Source: Clostridia bacterium
GTDB lineage: Bacteria; Bacillota; Clostridia; Acetivibrionales; DSM-27016
DNA: 43,982 nucleotides
Assembly: GCA_026414765.1 (NCBI GenBank)
Contig: JAOAIJ010000014.1
Coordinates: forward strand, 1-43,982
Direction: 5' to 3'
Shown here: in pieces, positions 1 to 43,982 of the stretch
Position numbering within the stretch: position 1 is the stretch's first letter
Layout of the letters: each line of letters starts with the position of its first letter
Translations under genes and position numbers: made by a program
Notes under the pieces: generated by a model
Told to the model about the DNA's origin: nothing
Seen by the model: only the letters and a program-made list of their open reading frames with translations
Database searches by the model: none

Positions 1-471
<471 letters not shown>

Positions 472-588
472 AATATCTGAAAATTTAATTAGCTCATTTT
501 AAAACTTACTGACTTTTTTTAATAAAGTTCGCATGTTTTACTCAAATTTATTGTTCGAGTTCCTTTTCATGATTATCATGAATTTACA

Positions 589-26502: not shown

Positions 26503-27759
26503 TCATTTGCTTGTCAGCTCGGTTACGCTTGTACGGTCCACTTCCCCGGTTTCTATATTGTGTACCTCGATGTTGTCTTTATCCAGTATATATATTATCC
26601 CGCCTATTCCCTTACTTTTTGCATATTCTTTCACATTAAGTATATCACCATTTGTTATGCTCATTTCTACCTTCAGGCCTTGTGCACGAAGCTCTTCACA
26701 AACCTCAAACGCAGTTTTCCTTCCATCCTCCTTATAGCTTATCATACTGTCTATCTGAGGCCTCTCTGTTTCAATCTTCTGCCTGTCTATAGCCATCATA
26801 ACCATGTTTATTCCTAATGAAAATCCTGTTGCAGGACATTTCATGCCAAATTTGTCAACAAGACTGTCATATCTTCCTCCGCTCAGGATAGGAAATCCTA
26901 CCCCATAGGTGAACCCTCTAAAAATAATGCCCGTATAGTAATTCAAACTTTGAACCATGCCCAGGTCTACAGATACGTACTTACTGAGTCCATAATCATC
27001 AAGGATTTTCAATACCTGCCTCAGATTTTCAAGAGCATCCAGCGATCTTTTATTTATGTTTATCTTTTCAACCCTGTCAATGACATCGATCGAACCAAAC
27101 AACCTCGGAAGGCTTAATATCAACTCTTTGAGGTCATCCCTGATATTATGCGCCTTTACCAGTTCTTCAATACCGAGATAATCCTTCTTGTCTATGAGAA
27201 TTCTCATCTGCTCTATGTCCTGTGCGGAAAGCCCCGTCTCTTCCATAAGTCCCTTGAAGAATTCCACCTGGCCGATGTCTATCTGGAAGCTTTCGAGTCC
27301 GGTTGACCTAACGGCTTTTATGGCTGAAGCTATAACCTCAGCGTCAGCCTCCGGATTACTTGCTCCTAATATTTCCAGCCCTGCTTGTGTAAACTCCTTC
27401 TGTTTACCGCCTCCAAGCTCGTTATATTTGAATGCATTACCCAAATAGAAGATTTTCATGGGGAATTGCGCTTCTTTGTATTTGGTCGCAACCATTCTTG
27501 CTATGGGAACAGTTATATCCGGTCTCAGTACCAGTATTCTGCCCTGCTGGTCAAAAAATTTGAACATTGTTTCCTGTGGCGTAAGTTCAGTATCAGAAGA
27601 GAAAACGTCATAAAACTCCAGCGTGGGGGTTTCCACCTCACAATATCCGCAGCTTCTGAAATATCTTCTGATGCTCTCCTCAAGATTCCTTTTTATAAAA
27701 CATTCTTCAAACAATATATCCTGTACACCCTCAGGCGTATATATCTTCCACTTACCCAA
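26503..27759 (-). CDS. hisZ: ATP phosphoribosyltransferase regulatory subunit HisZ
   Basis: About 418 residues starting at a TTG (27759) 6 bases after GAGGTG; a GTG at 27768 is part of that site and is less likely. HisZ is a paralogue of histidyl-tRNA synthetase that has lost aminoacylation and activates short HisG while conferring histidine feedback. Visible are WKIYTPEGVQDILFEE, the class II motif 2-like FYLGNAFKYNELGGGKQKEF, and the remnant LNYYTGIIFRGFTYGVGFPI. The anticodon-binding-like C-terminal region is present in part, which is more than in some HisZ. A histidyl-tRNA synthetase is less likely, given the position before hisG. Confidence 0.94.
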   Translation of the reverse strand: MGKWKIYTPEGVQDILFEECFIKRNLEESIRRYFRSCGYCEVETPTLEFYDVFSSDTELTPQETMFKFFDQQGRILVLRPDITVPIARMVATKYKEAQFPMKIFYLGNAFKYNELGGGKQKEFTQAGLEILGASNPEADAEVIASAIKAVRSTGLESFQIDIGQVEFFKGLMEETGLSAQDIEQMRILIDKKDYLGIEELVKAHNIRDDLKELILSLPRLFGSIDVIDRVEKININKRSLDALENLRQVLKILDDYGLSKYVSVDLGMVQSLNYYTGIIFRGFTYGVGFPILSGGRYDSLVDKFGMKCPATGFSLGINMVMMAIDRQKIETERPQIDSMISYKEDGRKTAFEVCEELRAQGLKVEMSITNGDILNVKEYAKSKGIGGIIYILDKDNIEVHNIETGEVDRTSVTELTSK

Positions 27760-27819
27760 AACGAGCACCTCACTTTATCGCTTTATCATGTTAAAGTAGT
27801 AAATTAATGAATTAAAATA

Positions 27820-27848
27820 ATTATAATGTGATTTTTTTCCCTTGTCAA
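27820..27848 (-). promoter_or_regulatory. Consensus promoter of the histidine operon
   Basis: Minus strand TTGACA (27848-27843), a 17-base spacer and TATAAT (27825-27820). The leader to hisZ is only about 55 bases, too short for a T-box or his leader-peptide attenuator. Regulation would have to be at the promoter or by HisZ-mediated feedback. Confidence 0.9.
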
Positions 27849-27876
27849 TAATATACCACAAAAATGAATAAAAAAA

Positions 27877-27904
27877 ATGACCCCCGTTTTGATACAGGAA
27901 TCAT
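27877..27904 (-). terminator. Terminator of the SLH protein gene
   Basis: ATGATTCC pairs with GGGGTCAT (two G-T pairs), and eight T follow on the minus strand. It lies about 95 bases after the stop at 28000 and immediately before the histidine promoter. Confidence 0.7.
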
Positions 27905-27999
27905 CTTTTATATCATAACCTCTTTATAATACTATTCCAGGTGCAAGCGTCCTTTCCGGCAGCAATTATACCTGCAATATCCTTTAATGCTATAAACTG

Positions 28000-29025
28000 T
28001 CACCTGATTTGCGCTTCATACCCATCGGGATTAATTCTGAAATCATCGGATTCACCTGTTATGAAACCTTTCATATATGCAGCCTTGCCCTTTACACTAT
28101 CCAGTATGCTCTCCTCGACATCCCAACTGAATTCTATTGATTTTCCCGGCTCAATGACAGTCTCCGTCAAAGCCATTATGAAAAGTTTATCTGAAGACCA
28201 TCTGTATAGAACCTCTTTATTTGAATCAAGCAAAGCAAAGTCAAACTTTTGTCCCGAGGAATGCTTGATGGTAACAGGGGTTTCTGAATTGTTTACAATC
28301 ATAAGCTTCAGCTTTAAGCTGTCCTCGCCTTTTTCTGCTACAGGTACTACCTGTACTTCCTCACTGAGCGACTTCAATACGTTTAGCAATCTGTAAGTTA
28401 CCATTACAGCTTCAGACCTTGTAGTTTTATGTTCCGGATGGAACATGTTTTTTCCTTTTCCCAATACAAGCTTCAGTAGCTGAGCCTTAATAAAATCGTT
28501 TTTATATGCAGGATTTATTTTATCTGCATCAGCAAAAGGCTCAGGCATCATTTTAATGAGCGAATAGTTTCCTCCTGTCTTATACTCCAGTGCATTAATA
28601 ATGTAGTGAACCATCTCATCTCGGGGCAAAGTATCATTGGGCCTGAACTTACCCTTGTAGTCGATTATATTCGCTGTTACCAGGTCAATCAGTGCAGATG
28701 CGTAAATATCCTCATTCTTCACGTCTTCGAAGTAGTCTTTGACATCTGGAGCTTTAAAATACATAATCTGGATTCCGAGCGCCTTATGAAGCATCATCAC
28801 GAATTCACTTCTCGTAATAGCTTTACCTGGAGTGAATTTACCGCTTTTGTCGGCAAAAATGCTTTTGTCGGCTACCTGGTTTATTGCTTCCTCTGCCCAA
28901 TGCTTGTCGATGTCGGTAAACTTCTTATCAGTCGCCTTGCTGTCCCCAGCTTCCTTTGCAAATGCTAAAGTACTGGAAGAAATAACTGCTAAGATCAGTA
29001 TGAATGCGATAATAATTTTCTTCAT
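28000..29025 (-). CDS. Secreted S-layer homology protein with BsuPI-like domain
   Basis: 341 residues from the ATG at 29025 (GGAGG upstream). A signal peptide (KKIIIAFILILAVISSSTLAFA) is followed by three SLH domains (about 35-85, 95-145, 155-210) with the typical starts FTDIDKHWAEEAI, FEDVKNEDIY and FADADKINPAYK and ITRSEFV-like motifs. SLH domains bind pyruvylated secondary cell-wall polymers. The C-terminal about 110 residues (KLMIVNNSETPVTIKHSSGQ, FDFALLD, SIEFSWDV) resemble the BsuPI intracellular proteinase inhibitor fold, here in an extracellular setting. It might inhibit a surface protease, but this is inferred from the fold only. It is transcribed alone. Confidence 0.85.
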   Translation of the reverse strand: MKKIIIAFILILAVISSSTLAFAKEAGDSKATDKKFTDIDKHWAEEAINQVADKSIFADKSGKFTPGKAITRSEFVMMLHKALGIQIMYFKAPDVKDYFEDVKNEDIYASALIDLVTANIIDYKGKFRPNDTLPRDEMVHYIINALEYKTGGNYSLIKMMPEPFADADKINPAYKNDFIKAQLLKLVLGKGKNMFHPEHKTTRSEAVMVTYRLLNVLKSLSEEVQVVPVAEKGEDSLKLKLMIVNNSETPVTIKHSSGQKFDFALLDSNKEVLYRWSSDKLFIMALTETVIEPGKSIEFSWDVEESILDSVKGKAAYMKGFITGESDDFRINPDGYEAQIR

Positions 29026-29259
29026 ATAAATACCTCCAATCAATAAGTAAACCACATATCTTGTTATCAGAAACCAGTGTTTTATTCTAAAAGCAAGTTC
29101 ATCATTTAAAATCTTTAAGCGCGCCTGATATTAAATGGTTAAAGAGAATTCTGTACTTTAATTCTCTCTATTTATTCTCTTTGTTTATTAGACTTATAGT
29201 AAGGCTATTTGTTCCGTAAAGTCATGTTAAGAAATTATTACATCCTTAAAATAATAAAA

Positions 29260-29299
29260 AACAACTGCATATGCAGGTTTAACCGCACGTGCAGCTGTT
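29260..29299 (-). terminator. Terminator of the lasso precursor/NHL transcript
   Basis: A stem of about 17 pairs (AACAGCTGCA with TGCAGTTGTT and an inner part, few G-T pairs and one mismatch) around TTAAA, followed by TTTTTT on the minus strand. It lies about 50 bases after the stop at 29349 and ends the transcription unit that begins at the lasso precursor. Confidence 0.85.
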
Positions 29300-29348
29300 A
29301 ATCGTAGAGTTACAGAAACATTCAATCAAAGTTATTGGATATTGCCGT

Positions 29349-29669
29349 TTACTTTATACTTTCAAACTGCAAAATCTCCAATGCCCTTTTAAAAGTAGTT
29401 GCCTGGTTTAGATCATATATGCCGGCTTTGATTTTCAAACCGTTTTCCTTCATATATTTCGCTAGTGATTCCCTTTCTTTCTTATCCAGCAGATCAATTT
29501 TTTCGACCGTTCTATAATCTGCTGTCTCACCGCTTTTTACCTCCAGGCGAAAGTGCTTGCCAATTTTCATTTCGTTTTTAGGCTTGAACAAGCCACTAAA
29601 ATTCATAAACAAAATACCTCCGGCAATTGAAACTATGAGGATTATAGCTAATAGTACTCTCTTTTTCAA
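29349..29669 (-). CDS. Small membrane-anchored protein, MltG/YceG-like fragment
   Basis: 106 residues from a TTG at 29669 with GGAGATG upstream (an in-frame TTG at 29687 is an alternative). One N-terminal membrane segment (VLLAIILIVSIAGGILFM) is followed by an extracytoplasmic part of about 75 residues. Its end, ENGLKIKAGIYDLNQATTF followed by RALEIL, resembles the LysM-like segment of endolytic transglycosylases (MltG/YceG) but lacks their catalytic domain. It lies 35 bases after the large NHL protein gene and shares its terminator, so it probably belongs to the same transcript. Function is unknown. Confidence 0.6.
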   Translation of the reverse strand: MKKRVLLAIILIVSIAGGILFMNFSGLFKPKNEMKIGKHFRLEVKSGETADYRTVEKIDLLDKKERESLAKYMKENGLKIKAGIYDLNQATTFKRALEILQFESIK

Positions 29670-29704
29670 CTTAACATCTCCGTTCAATCCAGGCTATGCG
29701 GATC

Positions 29705-32530
29705 TTATTCGCTGCCGGGTGTAATGAAGTCACCTGTTGCTCTGATATCCTCACCCGCATCAGCCGGTGTATACCCGTTCAGATCCTTCAAAAGATAATC
29801 TGCTATTGTTCCCTTGCCCGGTACGAGCTTTGGCAGTCCGTTCTCAACAATGGATTTGGTGTTTGGAGGCAGTGTCCAGTTGTGCTGCGACGTAGGCGAA
29901 GCAATACCAATACTCTGCAGAGCTTGTACCGCAACTGTCGTACAGTTGTTTGTCACCATATTATAGTCGCCGTTATAATTTATCATGAAATTGTATACTT
30001 TTTCTGCCTCTTCTGTAGTTATTTTATACTTTTTGCCTATATCCCACAAGCTTGTATTATCATCTCTTACTTCTCCATCCACGTCTGTCTTTAAAAGAAT
30101 TTCTTTTTGGGATAGAGCATTTTTAGGCCAGAAACCCTTATAGTATATACGTCCGTCACCAAAATCCACCCGAATAAATGTATGACCTACAGAACGCGCA
30201 CTGTTAAAATCAATAACAGTCCTGGTTCCCGGTACGGGCTGCTCTACCAATATTGCAACCGTAGGCTGCTTGATGATTTTGAAATCAGAAACTACTACTC
30301 CTGAATCAACGATCATATCTCCTACATCAGAAACAAGGACGCTTAATGTAACAGCTTTACCTTCATAGGCAGAAACATCAACTTCGACCTTTATTTCATC
30401 TGTGGATCCGTTAAACCCGGCTACACCAGCCTTCCATACCGATGTGTTCAGATTGCCCTTAGCCAGTACTTTAGCGCCTCCGGGGGTAATGAGCTTCACT
30501 ATGTAAGAATCATTAAACTGTGAGCCGTACCATGTAGGCCATTCATTGGAAACAAACTTTATCCTGCCTACAAGCTTCGCTGCATCTTTTTCAACCTTAA
30601 AAGTCTGCTGTAGTGTACCGTCAGCAACAGAATTCCCTGCAGTAGTTACTATGGCCGAATACCCTGGAGTGGCAGCAGCTAACGCCTGGACCGGTTCTTC
30701 TGCAGCAGCAAAAGACTGGACAGATTCTGCTGCCTTAAAGCTTTCGTTTTGTTCAGCCGCAAATTCTGACCTGGTAATTGTGCCTTCATCAGAAGTGCTT
30801 TCAGCCTGCGGTATTACACTTGTAAAAAATGCAGGGTCCGGTACTTCTTCCTGTTTCTCATCTACCTGTGGTTCCGGCGGAGTATCTTCATCAATGACAG
30901 GAGGATACTCTTCCGGAAATACCTGCTCTTTAGGTACGATGATAACATTGCTTGACGCTTCCCAACCATCCAGAGTCCCGGATGAGAAATCCCCATTTGT
31001 CAGCTTTTCCTGGATAACTATCGGTTTTTTTATAGTAATCTGTACAGAATTATGAGTTACATATGGAGTGATATAGGATATCTCCGTTCCGGAAGCAGCT
31101 GAAACCGGGTCAAATGCAGTTACCATGCAAGAACCGTCTGTAGGCAGTCCCAGGAGGCTGAAATCCCCATTTTCATTAGTAGTTGTTGTAGACTTTGCAT
31201 TGCTTTCTGCAAATTGGAGAGTAACTACAACATTGGCTGCTGTTTCTCCCGTATCAAATTTTACATTTCCCGTTACATTTCCGGCACCGGGAGTGGTCAT
31301 AATTAAAACAAAGTCAGCTTTGAGCTCCGATTCATTGATAAAACCGTCTATTGAACCTGAATAATTTTCATTAGTTGCAGTAATTACGAAATTTTCGTTT
31401 ACTGGTAAGTTATCAAAAATGACAGCTCCTGATTCGTTTGTGGTCCCCTGGTAGGTTGCCCCGGTGCTTACAACCGTGAGTGTAACACTTGAGCCGTTCA
31501 GAACGGTATTATCAGGAAGTTTAGTGATAACTGTAGCTGTTCCCGTGACCGGTATCAGAGTATCAGCTGCATACTGGATTTTAGCTGCGGTAGCATCAAC
31601 GACCCATATTGTATCCGATTTATCAATATTTACCCCTACAGGGCTTGTAAACAATCCTGCTGTAGTACCTTTTCCAGCAAATGTGAAATTATTGTTTACA
31701 CACTTTATATAACCTGATTGCCGTTCAGCGGCAAAAACATTTCCTAAGCTGTCTACACCCAATCCATACGGATAATTTGCAGAAAAACTACTTAAATACG
31801 AAAAATCTTTATCAAAACTCTGTACACGGTTATTGAAGGTATCACTTACCCATATATTATCCTCATTATCAATAGCCACATCATAGGGAGCTTTAAATTG
31901 TCCTTCTGCTGATCCGTTCATTCCAAAGGCTTTCCATGTTGCAGAAGCATCAGAGTTGTCAAACACACTAATACGATGATTATAAGTATCTGCTACATAA
32001 ACTACATTTCCTTTTACGTACACACCCATCGGCTTGTTGAACTGAAGCGGACCATTTCCTGAAATGCCGCCCCATACCTGCCATTCATCTGCTTCTATGG
32101 TTCCATTGGCATTATCATCCTTGAACCTTACAACCCGGTTGTTGTACGTATCAGCAACATAAACACGGTCTTGTCCATCAGTTGCTATACCACTTGGCTT
32201 GTAAAACTTCCCTACTTCAGAGCCATAAGTTCCGTAAGCTGTCAAAAACTTACCCGACTTATCAAACTTAACAATACGGTTATTGCCAAAGTCCGATATG
32301 TACAGGTTTCCGTTCGAGTCGACAGCCGAATCTGTCGGTCCATTGAACGGGGCGTTATTCCCAGTCACACTAAAGTATGAAAAATTAAGCTCAGGTTGAA
32401 TATTCGGAACAGAATCTGAATCTATTCCCAAATCACTGGCAAACAAAATATTGCCGGGTAAAAAAACAGTTGTCATCAAAATAAAAACCAAAAGACTGAC
32501 CAAAATTTTTCTTATTGCCCTATACCTCAC
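29705..32530 (-). CDS. Large secreted NHL-repeat protein with permuted papain-like C-terminal domain
   Basis: 941 residues from a GTG at 32530 (GGAGG 8 bases upstream; an in-frame GTG at 32557 is less likely). A signal peptide (ILVSLLVFILMTTVFLPGNILFA) is followed by about six NHL repeats forming a beta-propeller (about 55-330; for example GPTDSAVDSNGNLYISDFGN and PSGIATDGQDRVYVADTYNN). Two carboxypeptidase-regulatory-like beta-sandwich domains follow (about 335-410 and 415-500), then a Pro/Glu-rich linker (about 535-560) and a jelly-roll-like region (about 630-770). The C-terminus has His783 (GHTFIRVDF) and later Cys863 (NNCTTVAVQALQ), the His-before-Cys order of permuted NlpC/P60-like enzymes. 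The gene begins 24 bases after the lasso precursor stop without a terminator. A role in processing, retaining or sensing the lasso peptide is inferred from this position only. Confidence 0.8.
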   Translation of the reverse strand: MRYRAIRKILVSLLVFILMTTVFLPGNILFASDLGIDSDSVPNIQPELNFSYFSVTGNNAPFNGPTDSAVDSNGNLYISDFGNNRIVKFDKSGKFLTAYGTYGSEVGKFYKPSGIATDGQDRVYVADTYNNRVVRFKDDNANGTIEADEWQVWGGISGNGPLQFNKPMGVYVKGNVVYVADTYNHRISVFDNSDASATWKAFGMNGSAEGQFKAPYDVAIDNEDNIWVSDTFNNRVQSFDKDFSYLSSFSANYPYGLGVDSLGNVFAAERQSGYIKCVNNNFTFAGKGTTAGLFTSPVGVNIDKSDTIWVVDATAAKIQYAADTLIPVTGTATVITKLPDNTVLNGSSVTLTVVSTGATYQGTTNESGAVIFDNLPVNENFVITATNENYSGSIDGFINESELKADFVLIMTTPGAGNVTGNVKFDTGETAANVVVTLQFAESNAKSTTTTNENGDFSLLGLPTDGSCMVTAFDPVSAASGTEISYITPYVTHNSVQITIKKPIVIQEKLTNGDFSSGTLDGWEASSNVIIVPKEQVFPEEYPPVIDEDTPPEPQVDEKQEEVPDPAFFTSVIPQAESTSDEGTITRSEFAAEQNESFKAAESVQSFAAAEEPVQALAAATPGYSAIVTTAGNSVADGTLQQTFKVEKDAAKLVGRIKFVSNEWPTWYGSQFNDSYIVKLITPGGAKVLAKGNLNTSVWKAGVAGFNGSTDEIKVEVDVSAYEGKAVTLSVLVSDVGDMIVDSGVVVSDFKIIKQPTVAILVEQPVPGTRTVIDFNSARSVGHTFIRVDFGDGRIYYKGFWPKNALSQKEILLKTDVDGEVRDDNTSLWDIGKKYKITTEEAEKVYNFMINYNGDYNMVTNNCTTVAVQALQSIGIASPTSQHNWTLPPNTKSIVENGLPKLVPGKGTIADYLLKDLNGYTPADAGEDIRATGDFITPGSE

Positions 32531-32553
32531 TGAACAAGCCTCCTTTCCAATTT

Positions 32554-32688
32554 TCACGACCCGTATATTTCCGGTCCGTATTCGGGGTATGCCCCATCAA
32601 AATTCTCTCCAACCCACCCATTTTGGGTAAAATCCTCGAATTTCCCCAATTCTTTCAGAACCGGAACTTCATACTCTTTCTTTTGCAT
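32554..32688 (-). CDS. Lasso peptide precursor (44 residues)
   Basis: A short gene not found by length-limited ORF calling. The ATG at 32688 has AAAGGAG 8 bases upstream. The leader, MQKKEYEVPVLKELGKFEDF followed by TQ, has the lasso signature Y-x2-P-x-L-x3-G-x-F with a Thr just before the core (Y6, P9, L11, G15, F17, T21). The core is NGWVGENFD then GAYPEYGPEIYGS. The ring acceptor is most likely Asp31. It would close a 9-residue ring if the core starts at Asn23 (Thr at -2, the rule) or an 8-residue ring if it starts at Gly24. There are no cysteines. The last residue is Ser44, fitting C-terminal phosphorylation by the neighbouring kinase. Its promoter is at 32774-32802. Confidence 0.9.
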   Translation of the reverse strand: MQKKEYEVPVLKELGKFEDFTQNGWVGENFDGAYPEYGPEIYGS

Positions 32689-32714
32689 ACTAATACTCCT
32701 TTCACCTAAACTTT

Positions 32715-32763
32715 TTGGAATTACTTATTTCTTGGAATTCACTATTATTTACAAATAATTCCA
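32715..32763. repeat. TTGGAATT repeats in the lasso precursor leader
   Basis: TTGGAATT occurs at 32715-32722 and 32732-32739 in direct orientation, and AATTCCA at 32757-32763 in inverted orientation. All lie between the precursor -10 box and its start codon. The arms can pair as GGAATT/AATTCC in RNA. It may be an operator or an mRNA hairpin; the sequence alone does not decide. Confidence 0.45.
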
Positions 32764-32773
32764 TATATGTTAT

Positions 32774-32802
32774 ATTATATATACGAGAATTCCCATTGTC
32801 TA
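32774..32802 (-). promoter_or_regulatory. Promoter of the lasso precursor gene
   Basis: Minus strand TAGACA (32802-32797), a 17-base spacer and TATAAT (32779-32774). The leader is about 80 bases. On the plus strand a weaker TTGTCT (32796-32801), 16 bases and TAATTT would serve the maturation genes, so the two -35 boxes overlap. Confidence 0.7.
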
Positions 32803-32872
32803 GTACGCGCAGTAATATAATTTATTTCCCTGCTTCTGCTATATAAATGAAATCAGTTAAAGGAGTATACAA

Positions 32873-33133
32873 ATGAAGATTGTTGTCGAAAAGGAGATCA
32901 TTAAGACACGTTTGGATGATGAAATGGCAATACTCAACCAAAAGAATGGAAAGTATTTCAGTCTGAACAAAACCGGAATACGTATATTTGAACTTCTGCA
33001 GGAATGCGGAGAGACGGAAAAAGTCATTAATATAATGCTTGATGAGTATAGCATAGACGAAAGTCTATTAAGACGCGACTTTGACAATATTATGTCTCAA
33101 ATGTTGAAAGCAGAACTGGTGGTGCTGTCTTGA
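32873..33133 (+). CDS. Lasso leader-binding protein (PqqD-like RRE, B1)
   Basis: 86 residues, a stand-alone PqqD-family RiPP recognition element. Such proteins bind the precursor leader and present it to the leader peptidase. PqqD-type features are the N-terminal strands and the segment MAILNQKNGKYFSLNKTGIR, followed by a helical C-terminus (FELLQECGETEKV, DESLLRRDFDNIM). The ATG has AAAGGAG upstream. It overlaps the next gene by 4 bases (TTGA), indicating coupled translation. It is the first of three plus-strand lasso genes. Confidence 0.93.
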   Translation: MKIVVEKEIIKTRLDDEMAILNQKNGKYFSLNKTGIRIFELLQECGETEKVINIMLDEYSIDESLLRRDFDNIMSQMLKAELVVLS

Positions 33134-33540
33134 AAGCCATTACAGGCTTCCTTAAACTTTCACATCCTCAACGTTTAGTCGCTTTAAGGCTTTTATGGTA
33201 TATTATCCGTGCTGAATTTATTCTCCGGTTTATTCCTTATGCCACTGTGCAAAAAATTGTCTTTACAAAAAAGCCTTTACGCCGCCCCTCTTCTCCTGAA
33301 CCGCTGCATACTCTGAACTGCCATTTAAGATTATTGGACATGGTATGCAGGAACCTTCCATGGATTCCCACTTGCTTGCGAAAAGCAATTGCATTACATG
33401 ATTCACTGGCTGCACATGGTATAGATTCAACTATCAGAATCGGGGTCTGCCGCATACAAGGCAATCTGTCTGCCCATGCGTGGCTGGAATGCTGCAACCT
33501 GGAAGTGCTTAAAAACGGGACATATAGCTCACTATACTGA
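33130..33540 (+). CDS. Lasso leader peptidase (McjB/B2, transglutaminase-like)
   Basis: 136 residues, typical of split B2 proteins. It belongs to the microcin J25-processing family, a transglutaminase-like cysteine protease that removes the leader. The catalytic Cys82 is in WIPTCLRKAIALHDSL and His116 in NLSAHAWLE. DSTIRIGV before the His is also characteristic. The third acid is not certain. It starts with TTG inside the end of the B1 gene (4-base overlap). The kinase gene starts 37 bases downstream. Function assignment rests on motif and context together. Confidence 0.93.
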   Translation: MKAITGFLKLSHPQRLVALRLLWYIIRAEFILRFIPYATVQKIVFTKKPLRRPSSPEPLHTLNCHLRLLDMVCRNLPWIPTCLRKAIALHDSLAAHGIDSTIRIGVCRIQGNLSAHAWLECCNLEVLKNGTYSSLY

Positions 33541-33577
33541 TTTGAAAGCTGTACATATCCAACCATGGAGGGGTACT

Positions 33578-34492
33578 ATGCAAAAAAATGGATATAAAAT
33601 TCCTATCTACCGTGCATTCGGACTCAACATACAATGTGAACTGCCATCAGCACATACCTTTGGTATGGCCTGTGCGGGACAATCAGTTCCTGACGTTACC
33701 ATACGTGTTTCAGATGTACCTGTTGATCTGGAAAATGTATTTTATAAAGACAAGTTCATATCGGCATCTAGCGGGTGTATTCTGCTAAAAATAGAGGGGA
33801 TTGCCCGTTATCTTATTCGTGATGGGAAAGAAATTATTATACAAGTTGAGCCTGATGCTAGGGAAGGTGATGTAGCGACTTTTGCTTTCGGCTCCGCTTT
33901 GGGTACACTTTTATACCAACGCGGAATATTAGCCTTTCATGGCAGTGCTGTCCTGACTCCAAAAGGTGCTGTTATATTCACGGGTGAAAAAGGCGCAGGC
34001 AAGTCTACAACAGCTGCTGCCTTAAATGCAAAGGGACTGGATTTTATGTCCGACGATGTATGCGCTGTATATATAGAAGACGGTAAACCTATTCTTTACC
34101 CAGGCCTCTCACGGGCAAAGTTATCCATAGACAGCTACTCCCATATTAAAGGGTACGAGCCTGCTGAATCCCCCTTGTCTCCTGTATTGAAGAAGTATGG
34201 TGTTTCCTTCGGAAGCTGTATGAAGCCATCTCCTCTGCATGCGATTTGTGTTCTGGAAGCTGCTGTGGATAAGCCGGCGATTCGGAAGGTAAGTGGCGTC
34301 GAGCGCCTTTCATTATTATCCCGCCATATTTACCGCCCTTTGATTTATAAGCTTATAGCGCCTCCTTCGTTGCAATTCAGTCAATGCTCTGCCGTTTCAG
34401 CCAATGCGATTGCCATGCGTATTTATAGACCTGCCGATTACTGCATGATGGAAAGCTTTTTGGAACTGCTCCTGAATGCAGTTTTAGCTTAG
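33578..34492 (+). CDS. HPr-kinase-like lasso precursor kinase
   Basis: 304 residues from the ATG at 33578 (GGAGGGG upstream). It resembles the HPr kinase homologues found in paeninodin-type lasso clusters, which phosphorylate the C-terminal Ser of the precursor. The P-loop FTGEKGAGKSTTAA is at residues 136-144, preceded by ILAFHGSAV and followed by the Asp pair MSDDVCAV, as in HPrK. The C-terminal SRAKLSIDS and later parts are family-like. The precursor here ends in Ser, so the substrate is at hand. The TAG stop overlaps the stop of the convergent synthetase gene by 3 bases (TTAG). It is not the HPr kinase of carbon control: it lacks the usual HPrK N-terminal domain. Confidence 0.88.
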   Translation: MQKNGYKIPIYRAFGLNIQCELPSAHTFGMACAGQSVPDVTIRVSDVPVDLENVFYKDKFISASSGCILLKIEGIARYLIRDGKEIIIQVEPDAREGDVATFAFGSALGTLLYQRGILAFHGSAVLTPKGAVIFTGEKGAGKSTTAAALNAKGLDFMSDDVCAVYIEDGKPILYPGLSRAKLSIDSYSHIKGYEPAESPLSPVLKKYGVSFGSCMKPSPLHAICVLEAAVDKPAIRKVSGVERLSLLSRHIYRPLIYKLIAPPSLQFSQCSAVSANAIAMRIYRPADYCMMESFLELLLNAVLA

Positions 34493-36384
34493 TAATATAC
34501 TTTTCCAAACTCCAAAGGAACTGTCATGTCAAAGTCTGTATCAAAGGAAGCGAGAAAAAGTCCTGCCGACAATCCTGGGAGAAGGATTCTCGAGCAGTCT
34601 TTCATTATATCAAATCCGGTTTCTCCTTTTATTATCCTTTGAAGTATAAGACGCATGTTAGCTATATTTAGCAGCCCGCATGCAAGTAGGGAGGATTCTA
34701 TACACGCTATCGCCTGCAAAACATGGTGTCTGAAATTCCGTACCCTCGGAACAATATCTGAAGACTGCTGTCCCCTGTGCTTATTCAGCCTCACCTCATC
34801 AGGCAATATCCCTTCCATTCCGATTCTCATCATACGCCTGTCCATACCATCCTGAAAAAACATACTGTCAGGCAGGGAAAGAAGAAATTCCGTCAGCTTT
34901 ATATCCATTGTAGGATCACGCACCTCTACTCCATTCCAGTAACTGTTGTGATACCATATATCAAAGAGGTTCATATTTACCTCTGCTATACTGGCGTGAT
35001 CAACACTGTTTGTATCCTGTACACAGCCTGTACAAGACCTGAATAACTCACTGGATACAAACTGGAGATTCAAAAGAGGATATTCCTGTTTTACACTATA
35101 TCTACAGTCGTGTATAGTTTTCCTTATCTTTCTCATGGTTCTTCCGCTCTTCTGCCTAACAAGTCTTAAATAATCCTTCCACGGGGTGTGGGGATAGTAC
35201 TTCCACTTCGGTAAAAGTGTTATTTTGTGGGGAGACCATGAAACTGTACTATTTCCAAACTGGCCTGTCAGTAGTACACTGCAACCAGATTCTGCAGCCA
35301 GTGTAAGTATTTTATCTATCCAATATTGATTTGCAGCTGACACCTGAGGTCTTCCAGTACGAAGTATCTGCATCCTGATCGACTCAATAGGACTTACGCC
35401 TGCAGCATCTACTATTGTATGCCGGACATTTCCTTCCGCTGATATGGCTTTGGAAGCCAGAGTTCTCTCATCAGTAAGCCAGGAGCCAAAGGAGCATGCC
35501 TCATCAGGGTAACGTGGTGCCGCCGTCCATGTATGCAGAACCTTTCCATAAGGAATTAGTCCTCGTGCCGCCAATACACATACTGAAGACGAATCCAATC
35601 CTGCACTAAGCGTAGCACCAACTTCCGACTGACTCCTCAAACGTTTTTTGACAGCCTCGCTATAAAGTACTGAAAATCTATCAACAGCTTCCCTTTTATC
35701 CTTTATCCTGATTTGCCTTACTTGTGAGGGCCTCCACCAGACATGTTCATGTATCCTTCTATGTTTTACATCAATTCGGGAAGCAGGTAGGAGCTGGCTT
35801 ATACCCTTCCAGCAGGTAGCCTCCGGAGCCAGCGGTACAGCGCATAACATCTGGGTAATAACCTGTATATCCGGTTCATGCGGTATGCCGGGTAACCCAG
35901 CAAGCGAGCCCGGGTGTGTTGCAAAGGCCAGAAACTCATCTCCACGAAAAAAGTAGAGGGAAGAATGTCCCCATGATCTGGCCAGCAGCAGCTCCATGCT
36001 TGAGCTGTCATAAGCTGCAAGCATCCAATCCCCTTCAATACGCACCGGTGCATCTGCACCCCACTTCTGCCAGGCAGCCCACATGAGTTGCAAATCTGTT
36101 GCATTATGACTGCAAGCCAGTTCTTCTATCAGCTCTTCCCTGTTGTAAAGCGAGCCGGCTCCTGCCAAAATCATATCCTCTCTCCCGATAGTAATCATAT
36201 CCAATCCTGCATTTTTTGTACTGACAGGGATAGCTGCCGCAAGAGCAAGCGCACCACATATCTTCAGTTCAGTATATAAGCCTTCAGGCATATGCATGTT
36301 CTGCAGCAGCACTTTAGCATCGTCTATAGAAGCTTTATAGCCGTCAAAGTATATTTTTCCAGTAAAACCAGCCAGCATTTCCAT
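34489..36384 (-). CDS. Lasso macrolactam synthetase (McjC-like, asparagine-synthetase fold)
   Basis: 631 residues from the ATG at 36384 (AAAGAGAG upstream; the ATG at 36378 would give the N-terminus MLAGFTGKIYFDG, equally possible). The N-terminal glutaminase-like domain (about 1-200) lacks the Cys at position 2 and so cannot release ammonia. The C-terminal synthetase domain holds the ATP-pyrophosphatase loop LSAGLDSSSV (about 259-268). It adenylates the Asp side chain and closes the ring with the core's alpha-amine. Unlike B1, B2 and the kinase it is on the minus strand, transcribed towards them from its own promoter (36444-36472). Confidence 0.92.
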   Translation of the reverse strand: MEMLAGFTGKIYFDGYKASIDDAKVLLQNMHMPEGLYTELKICGALALAAAIPVSTKNAGLDMITIGREDMILAGAGSLYNREELIEELACSHNATDLQLMWAAWQKWGADAPVRIEGDWMLAAYDSSSMELLLARSWGHSSLYFFRGDEFLAFATHPGSLAGLPGIPHEPDIQVITQMLCAVPLAPEATCWKGISQLLPASRIDVKHRRIHEHVWWRPSQVRQIRIKDKREAVDRFSVLYSEAVKKRLRSQSEVGATLSAGLDSSSVCVLAARGLIPYGKVLHTWTAAPRYPDEACSFGSWLTDERTLASKAISAEGNVRHTIVDAAGVSPIESIRMQILRTGRPQVSAANQYWIDKILTLAAESGCSVLLTGQFGNSTVSWSPHKITLLPKWKYYPHTPWKDYLRLVRQKSGRTMRKIRKTIHDCRYSVKQEYPLLNLQFVSSELFRSCTGCVQDTNSVDHASIAEVNMNLFDIWYHNSYWNGVEVRDPTMDIKLTEFLLSLPDSMFFQDGMDRRMMRIGMEGILPDEVRLNKHRGQQSSDIVPRVRNFRHHVLQAIACIESSLLACGLLNIANMRLILQRIIKGETGFDIMKDCSRILLPGLSAGLFLASFDTDFDMTVPLEFGKVYY

Positions 36385-36443
36385 CTCTCTTTTCTTGGGT
36401 AGCAAACTTCATAGTCATCTTGTTCATATCAATATTCTTAAGC

Positions 36444-36472
36444 ATTATATCACCATTGGGATTAATTGTAAA
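36444..36472 (-). promoter_or_regulatory. Promoter of the lasso synthetase gene
   Basis: Minus strand TTTACA (36472-36467), a 17-base spacer and TATAAT (36449-36444), about 60 bases before the start codon. Confidence 0.7.
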
Positions 36473-36484
36473 CTTATACAATAA

Positions 36485-36515
36485 ATGCTCATGCAATTTA
36501 CCACTGCATGAGCAT
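36485..36515 (-). terminator. Hairpin terminator of pcrA
   Basis: ATGCTCATGCA and TGCATGAGCAT form a perfect 11-bp stem with a 9-base loop; a weak TTTATTGT follows on the minus strand. It begins 14 bases after the pcrA stop. Confidence 0.7.
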
Positions 36516-36528
36516 CTATACCCCTTAC

Positions 36529-38826
36529 TCAACCTATCTTGTTTAAATTCGCAAAAGCAGCCATAAGCCTTTTCATTCCAGCCTTCTCAAATTGGATTTC
36601 AAGCTTGAAGTCGTCTCCTTCTTTTTCAACTGAAGTTATTTCTCCTACACCAAATTTTTTATGCTCAACCTTATCCCCTGCAGCAAAACTCAAACCGGCC
36701 GGCGTTGGCTTTGAAACAGGGCTTGCTACAATTGAAGGTCTGAAGGATTTCATCTGAGCCTGATTACCGATACCAGCTCCTGTATTGATTATGCTGTCAA
36801 CACTTCTTCCGAAGACTGGCTTTGCAGCCCCCAAACCACCCATCTGGCTACTTCCCGGCCTGCTGCCAAAGCCGGTTTCTACTCTGTTTTCTTTTATTTT
36901 ATTAAGGTCATCTACAAGTTCAGCAGGAATTTCCTTCAGAAATCTGGAAGCCTTGTTATAAGTCGTGTTACCAAACAGAGTCCTGCTGAATGCATTTGTC
37001 AAAAAGAGCTTTTCCCTTGCACGGGTAATTCCCACATAGCAAAGTCTTCTCTCCTCTTCGACTTCATTTTCGTCCAGCATGGATCTATATCCGGGAAAAA
37101 CCCCTTCCTCAAGACCGACCAGGAATACTACAGGAAATTCAAGACCTTTTGCACTATGCAGTGTCATAAGGATTACATTGTCTGCATCCGGATCAACATT
37201 ATCAATATCTGCTACAAGAGATACATTTTCCAGGAAGCCCTCCAGGGTGTTTTCCATATCTCCTCTTGCCTCAAATTCCAGCGCTCCGGAAATTAATTCC
37301 TTAATGTTTTCTATTCTCGTACGGGATTCAGGTGTATCTTCATCTTCCAATTCTTTCAGTATGCCTGATTGTCCAATCACCTCACTAATCAGTTCCGATA
37401 CCTTCATACTCTCTTTCAAAGCTCTGAATTTTGATATAAGCAATACAAAGTTCTGCAATTTTCCTGCCGCTCTCTGTAAGTCCGGAATTTCATCAGCAGA
37501 CGAAATAATTGCAAATATACTGCAGCCACGTTTGTTTGCTATATCCTCAGCTTTACCCAGAGTAGCATCACCTATTCCCCTCTTTGGAACATTGATGATT
37601 CTCTTCAGGCTTATGTTATCCGCAGGATTTTGTATTACCCTGAGGTATGCTATTACATCCTTGATTTCTTTTCTATCATAGAATCTCAGGCCTCCGACTA
37701 TTTTGTAAGGGATGCCTTCCTTCATAAGCGTATCTTCTATAACACGGGACTGGGCGTTCACCCTGTAAAGTATGGCAAAATCCTTATATGACTTGTTATC
37801 AAGCCTGCTGAGTTTTTGGATCTCATTGCCTACAAAGAACGCTTCATCATGCTCGTTATTTCCCTGGTATAGCTGGATTTTGTTTCCTTCGGTATTATCA
37901 GTCCACAGACTCTTGGTCTTTCTGCCTGTATTGTTCTTTATCACACTATTTGCCGCATCAAGTATAGTCTGGGTAGAACGGTAATTCTGCTCGAGTTTTA
38001 TGGTTTTACATCCTTTAAATTCCTTTTCAAAGTCAAGAATATTCCGTATGTTAGCCCCTCTCCATCCGTAGATGGACTGATCATCATCTCCCACGACACA
38101 AAGATTTTTGCTTCCCTGTGCCAGAAGGCTGACCAAAGAATACTGGGCAGTATTTGTATCCTGATACTCATCTACAAGTACATATCTGAATTTTCTCTGA
38201 TAAAATTCCAATACAGCAGGGTTGTCCAGGAAAAGCTTTATTGTACACATAATAATATCATCAAAATCCAACGCATTATTCAGCCGCAGCTTCTTCTGAT
38301 AGAGCTCATATATAGCAGCAACCTTACTCATTTTAAAGTCTGATGCGTACATCTGAGTATAGGTTTTGGGTTCTATCAGTTCATCCTTTGCTCTACCTAT
38401 CATATCAAGAACAGACCTTGGCGGAAAATTTTTATCATTAAGGTTAAGTTCTTTAAGACAATCTTTAACAACAGTCTGCTGATCTGCTGAATCATAAATA
38501 ACAAAACTCTTGTCAAAGCCGATTTTATCTATATCACGCCTTAGCATTCTGACACACATGGAGTGGAATGTACTTACCCATATACTGTCACCCGCATCCT
38601 CTACCAGCTTTTCAATTCTTTCTTTCATCTCTCTTGCTGCTTTATTTGTAAAAGTGATTGCAAGAATACTGGCAGGATGCACACCCTTTTCCCGTATCAA
38701 ATAAGCAATTCTGTGTGTAAGTACACGGGTCTTGCCTGATCCGGCACCTGCAAGTATCAGAAGCGGACCCTCTGTATGTAATACAGCTTCCTGCTGTGGT
38801 TCATTTAAACCCTTCAACAAATCCAT
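36529..38826 (-). CDS. pcrA: ATP-dependent DNA helicase PcrA/UvrD
   Basis: 765 residues, full length for this superfamily 1A 3'-5' helicase of DNA repair and plasmid replication. Motifs in order: Q motif GLNEPQQEAVLH, Walker A ILAGAGSGKTRVLTHR (about 25-40), Ia AITFTNKAAREMKERI, Walker B VLVDEYQDTN, III VVGDDDQSIYGWRGA, IV EQNYRST, V MTLHSAKGLEFPVVF and VI YVGITRAREKLF. The C-terminal tail has the KVEHKKFGVGEITSVE PcrA-type Tudor-like segment, which binds RNA polymerase in Bacillus. The ATG has GGAGATG upstream. The truncated UvrC-like gene lies 110 bases upstream. Confidence 0.98.
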   Translation of the reverse strand: MDLLKGLNEPQQEAVLHTEGPLLILAGAGSGKTRVLTHRIAYLIREKGVHPASILAITFTNKAAREMKERIEKLVEDAGDSIWVSTFHSMCVRMLRRDIDKIGFDKSFVIYDSADQQTVVKDCLKELNLNDKNFPPRSVLDMIGRAKDELIEPKTYTQMYASDFKMSKVAAIYELYQKKLRLNNALDFDDIIMCTIKLFLDNPAVLEFYQRKFRYVLVDEYQDTNTAQYSLVSLLAQGSKNLCVVGDDDQSIYGWRGANIRNILDFEKEFKGCKTIKLEQNYRSTQTILDAANSVIKNNTGRKTKSLWTDNTEGNKIQLYQGNNEHDEAFFVGNEIQKLSRLDNKSYKDFAILYRVNAQSRVIEDTLMKEGIPYKIVGGLRFYDRKEIKDVIAYLRVIQNPADNISLKRIINVPKRGIGDATLGKAEDIANKRGCSIFAIISSADEIPDLQRAAGKLQNFVLLISKFRALKESMKVSELISEVIGQSGILKELEDEDTPESRTRIENIKELISGALEFEARGDMENTLEGFLENVSLVADIDNVDPDADNVILMTLHSAKGLEFPVVFLVGLEEGVFPGYRSMLDENEVEEERRLCYVGITRAREKLFLTNAFSRTLFGNTTYNKASRFLKEIPAELVDDLNKIKENRVETGFGSRPGSSQMGGLGAAKPVFGRSVDSIINTGAGIGNQAQMKSFRPSIVASPVSKPTPAGLSFAAGDKVEHKKFGVGEITSVEKEGDDFKLEIQFEKAGMKRLMAAFANLNKIG

Positions 38827-43883: not shown

Positions 43884-43891
43884 ATATAAAT

Positions 43892-43982
43892 CTGGCAGAG
43901 ACCTACTTTCCCGGGGCGCTTCCACCCAAGTATCATTGGCACTGAGAAGCTTAACTGCCGTGTTCGGTATGGGAACGGGTGT
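43892..43982 (-). rRNA. rrf: 5S ribosomal RNA, 3' part (cut by window edge)
   Basis: The minus strand carries conserved 5S segments: CCGTTCCCATACCGAACACG, AGTTAAGCTTCTCAG and GGGTGGAAGCGCC, ending with TCTCTGCCAG. The 3' end is near 43892 and the 5' part lies beyond the right edge. It belongs to a second rRNA operon in the same orientation as the 16S gene at the left edge. Confidence 0.97.

What the first reader, a model, noticed from the sequence alone, without database searches (positions are those of the whole stretch)
32554..32688. Unannotated lasso peptide precursor ending in serine
A 44-codon minus-strand gene with a strong ribosome site encodes a textbook lasso leader (Y-x2-P-x-L-x3-G-x-F and a Thr before the core) and a Cys-free core with an Asp at ring position 8 or 9. 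The core sequence (GWVGENFD then GAYPEYGPEIYGS, with or without a leading Asn) matches no lasso peptide that I remember. An Asn at core position 1 would be unusual.
Basis: partly seen in the sequence, partly recalled or inferred. Interest (0 to 1): 0.9.

Follow-up and report, generated by a model that had tools for sequence, protein, structure and literature searches.

The report
Lasso peptide precursor starting with asparagine
A small bacterial gene encodes the starting chain of a probable knotted "lasso" peptide whose ring most likely begins with asparagine and whose last residue is probably phosphorylated; it is a new example of a known class, with an uncommon leader and an unusual, probably secreted protein encoded right behind it.

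Summary
32554-32688 (-) is a 44-codon gene with a ribosome site, beside lasso genes B1 (PqqD), B2 protease, an HprK-like kinase and an Asn-synthetase-like cyclase. The full signature (Y-17, P-14, L-12, T-2, ring acid, terminal Ser) occurred in none of 300 random window-size sequences and only at this gene in 1.83 Mb of fetched loci.

Core start: published leader spacing and T(-2) put Asn first: NGWVGENFD-GAYPEYGPEIYGS, Asn1-Asp9 ring. Asn1 is not a freak: 10 of 96 distinct candidate cores from related loci begin with Asn, all 10 with Asp9, and metanodin (2025) is a published Asn1 lasso peptide. The only Ser is the last residue and the kinase keeps the His-Lys-Asp-Asp residues, so C-terminal Ser phosphorylation is likely.

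It is not of the paeninodin family: Y(-17) instead of W(-15) leader, cyclase and kinase outside the group holding most Bacillota rows. The genes lie in 8.76 kb between hisZ and pcrA that two relatives lack at this site. No transporter family was found among 35 window proteins. A probably secreted NHL-repeat protein with a conserved Cys/His region starts 23 nt behind the precursor, role unknown. Structure and phosphorylation remain predictions.

The parts
32554..32688 (-). lasso precursor gene A: leader MQKKEYEVPVLKELGKFEDFTQ, core NGWVGENFDGAYPEYGPEIYGS (core codons 32557-32622, stop 32554-32556)
32873..33133 (+). B1, discrete RiPP recognition element (PqqD family), divergent from A
   Evidence: Pfam PqqD 50 bits; NCBIfam lasso_PqqD_Strm 55.1 bits, cut-off 70
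33130..33540 (+). B2, leader peptidase (transglutaminase-like), Cys82 and His116 conserved
   Evidence: NCBIfam lasso_biosyn_B2 61.8 bits over cut-off 33; Pfam Transglut_core3; alignment of seven
33578..34492 (+). K, HprK-like kinase with H121, K142, D159, D160
   Evidence: weak Hpr_kinase_C and HprK_rel_A matches, both under cut-off; alignments with kinases of other such clusters
34489..36405 (-). C, asparagine-synthetase-like macrolactam cyclase; no Cys at the start of the amidotransferase part
   Evidence: Pfam Asn_synthase and GATase_7; NCBIfam lass_lactam_cya 194.3 bits, under its cut-off of 525; trees
29705..32530 (-). 941-aa protein starting 23 nt after A's stop: signal-peptide-like start (read by eye), NHL repeats, carboxypeptidase regulatory-like repeats, weak Lnb_N match near the C-terminus (GH...NNC); probably one transcript with A
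   Evidence: role in the pathway not shown
32689..32872 (.). divergent A/B1 intergenic region with promoter-like sites (32802-32774 on -, 11 of 12; 32748-32776 on +, 10 of 12) and the inverted repeat ATTATTT-N2-AAATAAT
   Evidence: consensus scan: 30 sites found in 27700-36600, 23.1 sd 4.5 expected from shuffles, so not evidence of function; inverted repeats
27769..36528 (.). 8760-bp segment holding the cluster between hisZ (HisRS-like, next to hisG) and pcrA; relatives G003 and G013 have hisZ and pcrA adjacent

Best explanation
The gene encodes the precursor of a class II (Cys-free) lasso peptide. B1 binds the leader through Y(-17)/P(-14)/L(-12) and presents it to B2, which cuts after Gln(-1), the residue that follows Thr(-2). 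C activates the Asp9 side chain and joins it to the amine of Asn1, trapping the tail GAYPEYGPEIYGS in a nine-residue ring. The kinase phosphorylates the only Ser, the last residue, probably on the precursor before cyclisation, as for paeninodin. Shown: genes, spacing, conserved residues, comparative pattern. Inferred: binding, cleavage, cyclisation, threading, phosphorylation. Export, target and the part of the co-encoded NHL protein are unknown.
For: Gene and signature beyond chance. B2 over its curated cut-off; B1 and C over Pfam cut-offs with lasso models as best NCBIfam hits. Y(-17), P(-14), L(-12) are published as what B1 proteins recognise. Asp lies 10 residues after Thr(-2), as in 77 of 96 distinct comparison cores (Asp9). 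Asn1 in 10 of 96 distinct cores, all with Asp9; metanodin's MS data support an Asn1 ring. Kinase residues H121, K142, D159, D160, invariant among six aligned kinases, fit the published His-Lys-Asp-Asp motif. The precursor has one Ser, its last residue, the site phosphorylated in paeninodin and pseudomycoidin (PMC9266682 passages).
Against: lasso_leader_L3 is below cut-off (16.5 of 19), B1 and the cyclase are under their lasso-specific cut-offs, the kinase matches are weak, and in another set of six kinases the second Asp is not invariant. Paeninodin-like Bacillota precursors have W nearly invariant, this one has Y. In the cyclase tree, 3 of the window's 8 companions (L091, L093, L094) show no B2 by my profile and 2 (L093, L097) no kinase, so that group is not purely lasso. 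BsfK phosphorylates Ser3, not a terminal Ser (abstract). No transporter found. No product data. B2 ends a few residues earlier than its relatives and matches positions 6-117 of the 132-position profile.
Confidence: 0.75

Rival explanations
1. Core starts at Gly24 (GWVGENFD), Gly1-Asp8 ring, cleavage after Asn.
For: Gly is a common first residue (13 of 99 rows), and a Gly1-Asp8 ring is proposed for BsfA.
Against: Would put Thr at -3 and the YxxPxL motif one residue off the published -17/-14/-12; Asp8 is rare in the comparison set (1 of 96 distinct cores), though that set is anchored on Thr(-2).
Confidence: 0.12
2. A linear phosphopeptide (LPP-like) or another RiPP: the synthetase-like enzyme does something else, such as C-terminal amidation or nitrile formation.
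For: Linear polyphosphorylated peptides share an RRE and an HprK kinase with lasso clusters; Asn-synthetase-like enzymes can make nitriles (abstract of PMC13060819); some of the cyclase's tree companions show no B2.
Against: B2 present and over cut-off; T(-2) and Asp9 present; the LPP motif YxxPxVLxHQxIxFETxxS is absent; the eight proteins of 28003-36405 scanned against Pfam, seven of them also against NCBIfam, gave no signal peptidase or MNIO match.
Confidence: 0.08
3. Decayed or silent cluster: genes are relics and no peptide is made.
For: No transporter found among 35 window proteins; B2 slightly short; no relative found by the single-protein cyclase scan.
Against: All reading frames open, catalytic residues kept, ribosome sites present.
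Confidence: 0.05

Closest known systems
Paeninodin-type lasso peptides (PadeA/PadeK; PMC9266682 passages)
   Same: split B1/B2, HprK-like kinase, terminal Ser; Asp9 in most comparison cores
   Different: Y(-17) instead of W(-15) leader; no NF033524 hit; cyclase and kinase outside the group that holds the paeninodin-type rows; no ABC transporter found; different gene order
Metanodin (PMC12670498)
   Same: Asn at core position 1, Thr(-2), Asp ring residue
   Different: gammaproteobacterial, classical A-B-C order, the expressed construct held A, B and C and no kinase, different core
Bacilli Asn1-Gly2...Asp9 two-Cys precursors (L075/L084, L098, L105, L119, L145, L146, L147, L157)
   Same: Asn1-Gly2...Asp9, kinase, terminal Ser
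   Different: two Cys in the tail, W(-15) leader; two of them tested match the paeninodin family model
Halopiger xanaduensis plasmid cluster (L055)
   Same: Y(-17)P(-14)L(-12)G(-8)T(-2) leader, B1, B2, kinase, cyclase
   Different: archaeal; core would start with Gln and ends in Thr
BsfA of Bradymonas (PMC10368454)
   Same: Y(-17) spacing, split B, kinase
   Different: Ile(-2), Gly1-Asp8, phosphate on Ser3
Linear polyphosphorylated peptides (PMC13381572)
   Same: YxxP leader, RRE, HprK-like kinase
   Different: no cyclase, signal-peptidase-like leader peptidase, different leader motif

Membership tests
lasso peptide gene cluster | precursor with YxxPxL leader and Thr(-2) | tested here: met
   lasso_leader_L3 16.5 bits, below cut-off 19
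lasso peptide gene cluster | B1 recognition element | tested here: met
   PqqD over Pfam cut-off; lasso-specific models 55.1 and 47.2 bits, below cut-offs 70 and 80
lasso peptide gene cluster | B2 leader peptidase | tested here: met
   NF033537 61.8 bits, cut-off 33
lasso peptide gene cluster | Asn-synthetase-like cyclase | tested here: met
   Pfam over cut-off; a lasso cyclase model is the best NCBIfam hit but under cut-off; tree companions are mixed, 5 of 8 with B2 and 6 of 8 with kinase
lasso peptide gene cluster | Asp or Glu at core 7-9 | tested here: met
   Asp9 from Asn1, Asp8 from Gly2
lasso peptide gene cluster | isopeptide bond and threaded tail | not testable with these tools
   needs MS or NMR
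paeninodin family (NF033524) | NF033524 precursor match, W(-15) leader | tested here: not met
   no hit, Y(-17); three comparison Bacilli precursors hit at 57.7-58.7 bits
paeninodin family (NF033524) | HprK-like kinase and terminal Ser | tested here: met
paeninodin family (NF033524) | cyclase and kinase in the group of paeninodin-type rows | tested here: not met
   window outside the 100/99 (C, 15 rows) and 95/91 (K, 17 rows) groups; window rows are long branches, and two other Bacillota rows, L048 and L094, also fall outside
linear polyphosphorylated peptides | YxxPxVLxHQxIxFETxxS motif, signal-peptidase-like protease, no cyclase | tested here: not met
   sequence, families, definition

The most novel reading that the evidence does not exclude
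The NHL-repeat/Lnb_N-like protein encoded 23 nt behind the precursor is a dedicated partner: a secreted beta-propeller with a Cys-His hydrolase-like domain that binds, anchors or opens the lasso peptide outside the cell. It would be a non-homologous counterpart of the beta-propeller-bearing lasso isopeptidases (architecture recalled), in a cluster where neither transporter nor isopeptidase was found.
Probability: 0.1. Interest if true: 0.7.

Novelty: new member of a known kind. Interest (0 to 1): 0.4.

Why it matters
It adds a precursor whose core is in no held paper, in a cluster whose precursor, B1, cyclase and kinase all score under their lasso- or kinase-specific cut-offs. It also shows that Asn as first ring residue, reported once by experiment in 2025, recurs in predicted Bacillota precursors, so mining rules that demand Gly, Ala, Ser or Cys at position 1 can miss candidates. 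If the kinase works as predicted, it couples terminal-Ser phosphorylation to a Y(-17) leader in Bacillota, a useful test of what the kinase and B1 read.

Tried and rejected
AlphaFold on the last 192 residues of the NHL protein without an alignment gave mean pLDDT 34.2; discarded, no fold search was run. Relatives of the precursor: 16 of 100 genomes had a match at E <= 1, but apart from the window's own (3.4e-27) none was better than 0.19, so treated as noise. The single-protein cyclase scan of genome contigs found no relative. The kinase alignment A1 was too divergent to scan with. Plasmid searches gave only distant kinases and cyclases, under 60% identity: 13 records and 7 records. The whole NHL protein matched in 10 of 58 relatives (E <= 1e-10), strongly only in its own genome and G042; its last 326 residues matched in 1 of 291 genomes of the class, its own (G042 is not among the genomes listed there). 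The NHL protein has no match in the 79 genome-contig loci by profile (E <= 1e-5) or phmmer (E <= 10), so a general link to lasso clusters is not supported. Long-branch neighbours in the trees are not taken as sister groups. A frameshift in B2 was considered and rejected: its end aligns with relatives' ends apart from a few residues. Papers: PMC12670498 abstract and section 5 read; PMC13381572 abstract and sections 6, 7, 9; PMC10368454 abstract and section 22; PMC9266682 passages; PMC13060819 abstract; the rest listing and abstract starts only.

Full report
Observation. The minus-strand ORF 32554-32688 exists as described: 44 aa, ATG, AAGGAG seven bases upstream, terminal Ser, no Cys. The pattern Y-17, P-14, L-12, T-2 with an acid at core 9 and a terminal Ser was absent from 300 first-order random sequences of window size; the leader part alone came at 0.187 and with a ring acid at 0.01 per sequence. 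The window holds the leader part twice; the second is a plus-strand ORF without the rest. In 1,830,493 bases of fetched loci (L040 onward, partly overlapping) the full pattern occurred once, and the list shows that this is L072, a stretch of the window's own contig. The NCBIfam leader model gives 16.5 bits against a cut-off of 19.

Neighbourhood. Divergent from the precursor lie B1 (32873-33133), B2 (33130-33540) and an HprK-like kinase (33578-34492); the cyclase (34489-36405) converges on them from the other strand. B2 passes its curated cut-off (61.8 of 33 bits); B1 passes Pfam PqqD but not the lasso-specific models; the cyclase's best NCBIfam hit is a lasso cyclase model, far under cut-off; the kinase matches are weak. 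Kinase residues H121, K142, D159 and D160 are invariant among six kinases; in the other set of six the second Asp is not. They fit the His-Lys-Asp-Asp motif described for lasso kinases (PMC9266682 passages). B2 keeps Cys82 and His116 in all seven aligned. None of 35 window proteins scanned matches a transporter family (at E <= 0.1 for the eight of 28003-36405; at E <= 1e-10 for 27 others, four of which had no family).

Core boundary. [quoted passage not shown] In this precursor these numbers, and Thr(-2), hold only if Asn23 is core residue 1. The ring acid is then Asp9. I collected candidate precursors from fetched loci: aromatic-xx-P-x-hydrophobic, Thr at the matching distance, a ribosome-site-like motif, and either a terminal Ser or an acid at 7-9. 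That filter fixes Thr(-2) and biases the counts for terminal Ser and acids; it does not select on residue 1. It gave 101 rows; by eye I dropped two that are plainly chance ORFs (the one in L070, a pcrA region, and YGCPC... in L138), leaving 99 rows in 80 locus ids and 96 distinct cores. Of the 79 genome-contig loci, 67 gave a row. Residue 1 of the distinct cores: Ala 49, Gly 13, Leu 11, Asn 10, Tyr 6, His 2, Lys 2, Thr, Arg, Phe 1 each. Asp9 in 77 of 96, Asp8 in 1 of 96, terminal Ser in 93 of 96. All ten Asn1 cores have Asp9. The set is dominated by paeninodin-type clusters, because the scan used a cyclase alignment with such members, so 10 of 96 is not a general frequency.

What is published on Asn1. 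Metanodin, expressed in E. coli from a soil metagenome cluster, is reported as the first lasso peptide with Asn as ring-forming residue 1 (PMC12670498, abstract and section 5). A search for 'lasso peptide' with 'Asn1' gave two papers, judged from listing and abstract starts as not about this. No held paper contains the pieces NGWVGENF, GWVGENFD or GAYPEYGPEIYGS. The library holds open-licence PMC papers only.

Type of cluster. PMC13381572 (section 9) reports that W in the W/YxxP motif is nearly invariant in paeninodin-like precursors, while other Bacillota lasso precursors mostly have YxxP. Here Y(-17) comes together with a kinase. In trees of 34 kinases and 32 cyclases (15 of the 79 scan loci added to the earlier rows; rows of L043, L085, L086 and L087 left out) the window falls outside the supported groups that hold most Bacillota rows (kinase 95/91, 17 rows; cyclase 100/99, 15 rows). 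Two other Bacillota rows, L048 (same class as the window) and L094 (Sporomusa), fall outside too. The window cyclase lies in a mixed-phylum group (99/97, 9 rows) with Desulfobacterales, an Acidobacteria MAG, Bacteroidota, Sporomusa, Wallbacteria and others. Of its eight companions five have B2 and six a kinase by my profiles, so the group is not purely lasso. Window rows are long branches, so the exact neighbour is unsure. The Halopiger plasmid precursor (L055) has the same Y/P/L/G/T spacing and also sits by B1, B2, kinase and cyclase. Transfer from outside the paeninodin line is my inference, not shown.

Place in the genome. pcrA (UvrD helicase with PcrA tudor domain) and hisZ (HisRS-like, beside hisG) are named from Pfam and context. 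pcrA was found in 8 of 8 relatives searched and I fetched regions of 6. In G003 and G013 hisZ and pcrA are adjacent (gaps of about 0.7 and 0.1 kb); in G042 one unrelated ORF lies between them; in G024 an SLH protein like that of the window follows pcrA before unrelated genes, and hisZ is not in the stretch; in G001 and G005 hisZ is not near. The window has 8760 bp between them, so the genes were gained here or lost in the relatives. G003 and G013 carry a B2 gene elsewhere, so they lack the segment at this site, not lasso genes altogether.

The protein behind the precursor. The gene at 32530-29705 starts 23 nt after the precursor's stop with its own GGAGG, and no terminator-like site lies between, so one transcript is likely. 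It has a signal-peptide-like start (by eye), NHL repeats and carboxypeptidase regulatory-like repeats over their cut-offs, and an Lnb_N match of 19.6 bits, below the cut-off of 22.2. Its last third is 68% identical (214 of 317) to a protein of G042 that carries SLH domains instead of the propeller, with GH and NNC conserved; G042 has no B2 match. So the C-terminal part exists without lasso genes, and a lasso-specific role is unproven.

Mechanism and limits. Most likely order: phosphorylation of the last Ser on the precursor, B1-guided cleavage before Asn1 by B2, Asn1-Asp9 closure by C. Only genes, residues and comparative patterns are shown. Interest is moderate: a sound, easily overlooked member of a known class with an uncommon first residue and leader.

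Noticed in passing
window 29705-32530 (-): Probably secreted NHL-repeat protein with an Lnb_N-like Cys/His region, encoded 23 nt behind the precursor; its C-terminal third is 68% identical to an SLH-domain protein of G042, a genome without a lasso B2 match.
   Followed up: partly
L045 / L158: Lasso-like cluster with B1, B2, kinase, cyclase and a radical SAM/SPASM enzyme; two precursors with T-Q-N...D9 and Cys near the end.
   Followed up: partly
L105, L119, L145, L146, L147, L157, L098, L075/L084: Recurring Bacilli precursors starting Asn-Gly with Asp9 and two Cys in the tail; in 5 of these 8 (L105, L119, L145, L146, L157) a second, Ala1 precursor is near, in L147 a Leu1 one.
   Followed up: partly
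L055 5761-5922 (-): Archaeal (Halopiger plasmid) precursor, not in the listed gene table, with the Y(-17) leader beside B1, B2, kinase and cyclase; lasso_leader_L3 19.3 bits, just over its cut-off of 19.
   Followed up: partly
L056, L054, L049: Alphaproteobacterial plasmids with lasso-type kinases but no B2 found by my profile; L056 and L049 also carry a PqqD protein and an Asn-synthetase-like protein, L056 an aspartyl hydroxylase, L049 and L054 a sulfotransferase.
   Followed up: no
L110, L115, L133, L136, L151, L169: Small ORFs with a YxxPxxL-like start and Q-x3-F-E-T-A-Q-S-W, resembling the published linear polyphosphorylated peptide motif, near lasso clusters.
   Followed up: no
L095: Record titled Klebsiella pneumoniae MAG holds a cyclase that groups with that of an Acidobacteria MAG (L092, 95/96), and no precursor was recognised; the title may be wrong.
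   Followed up: no
window 1-472 (-) and 43890-43982 (-): The contig ends in partial 16S and 5S rRNA genes, so the assembly probably breaks at rRNA operons.
   Followed up: no
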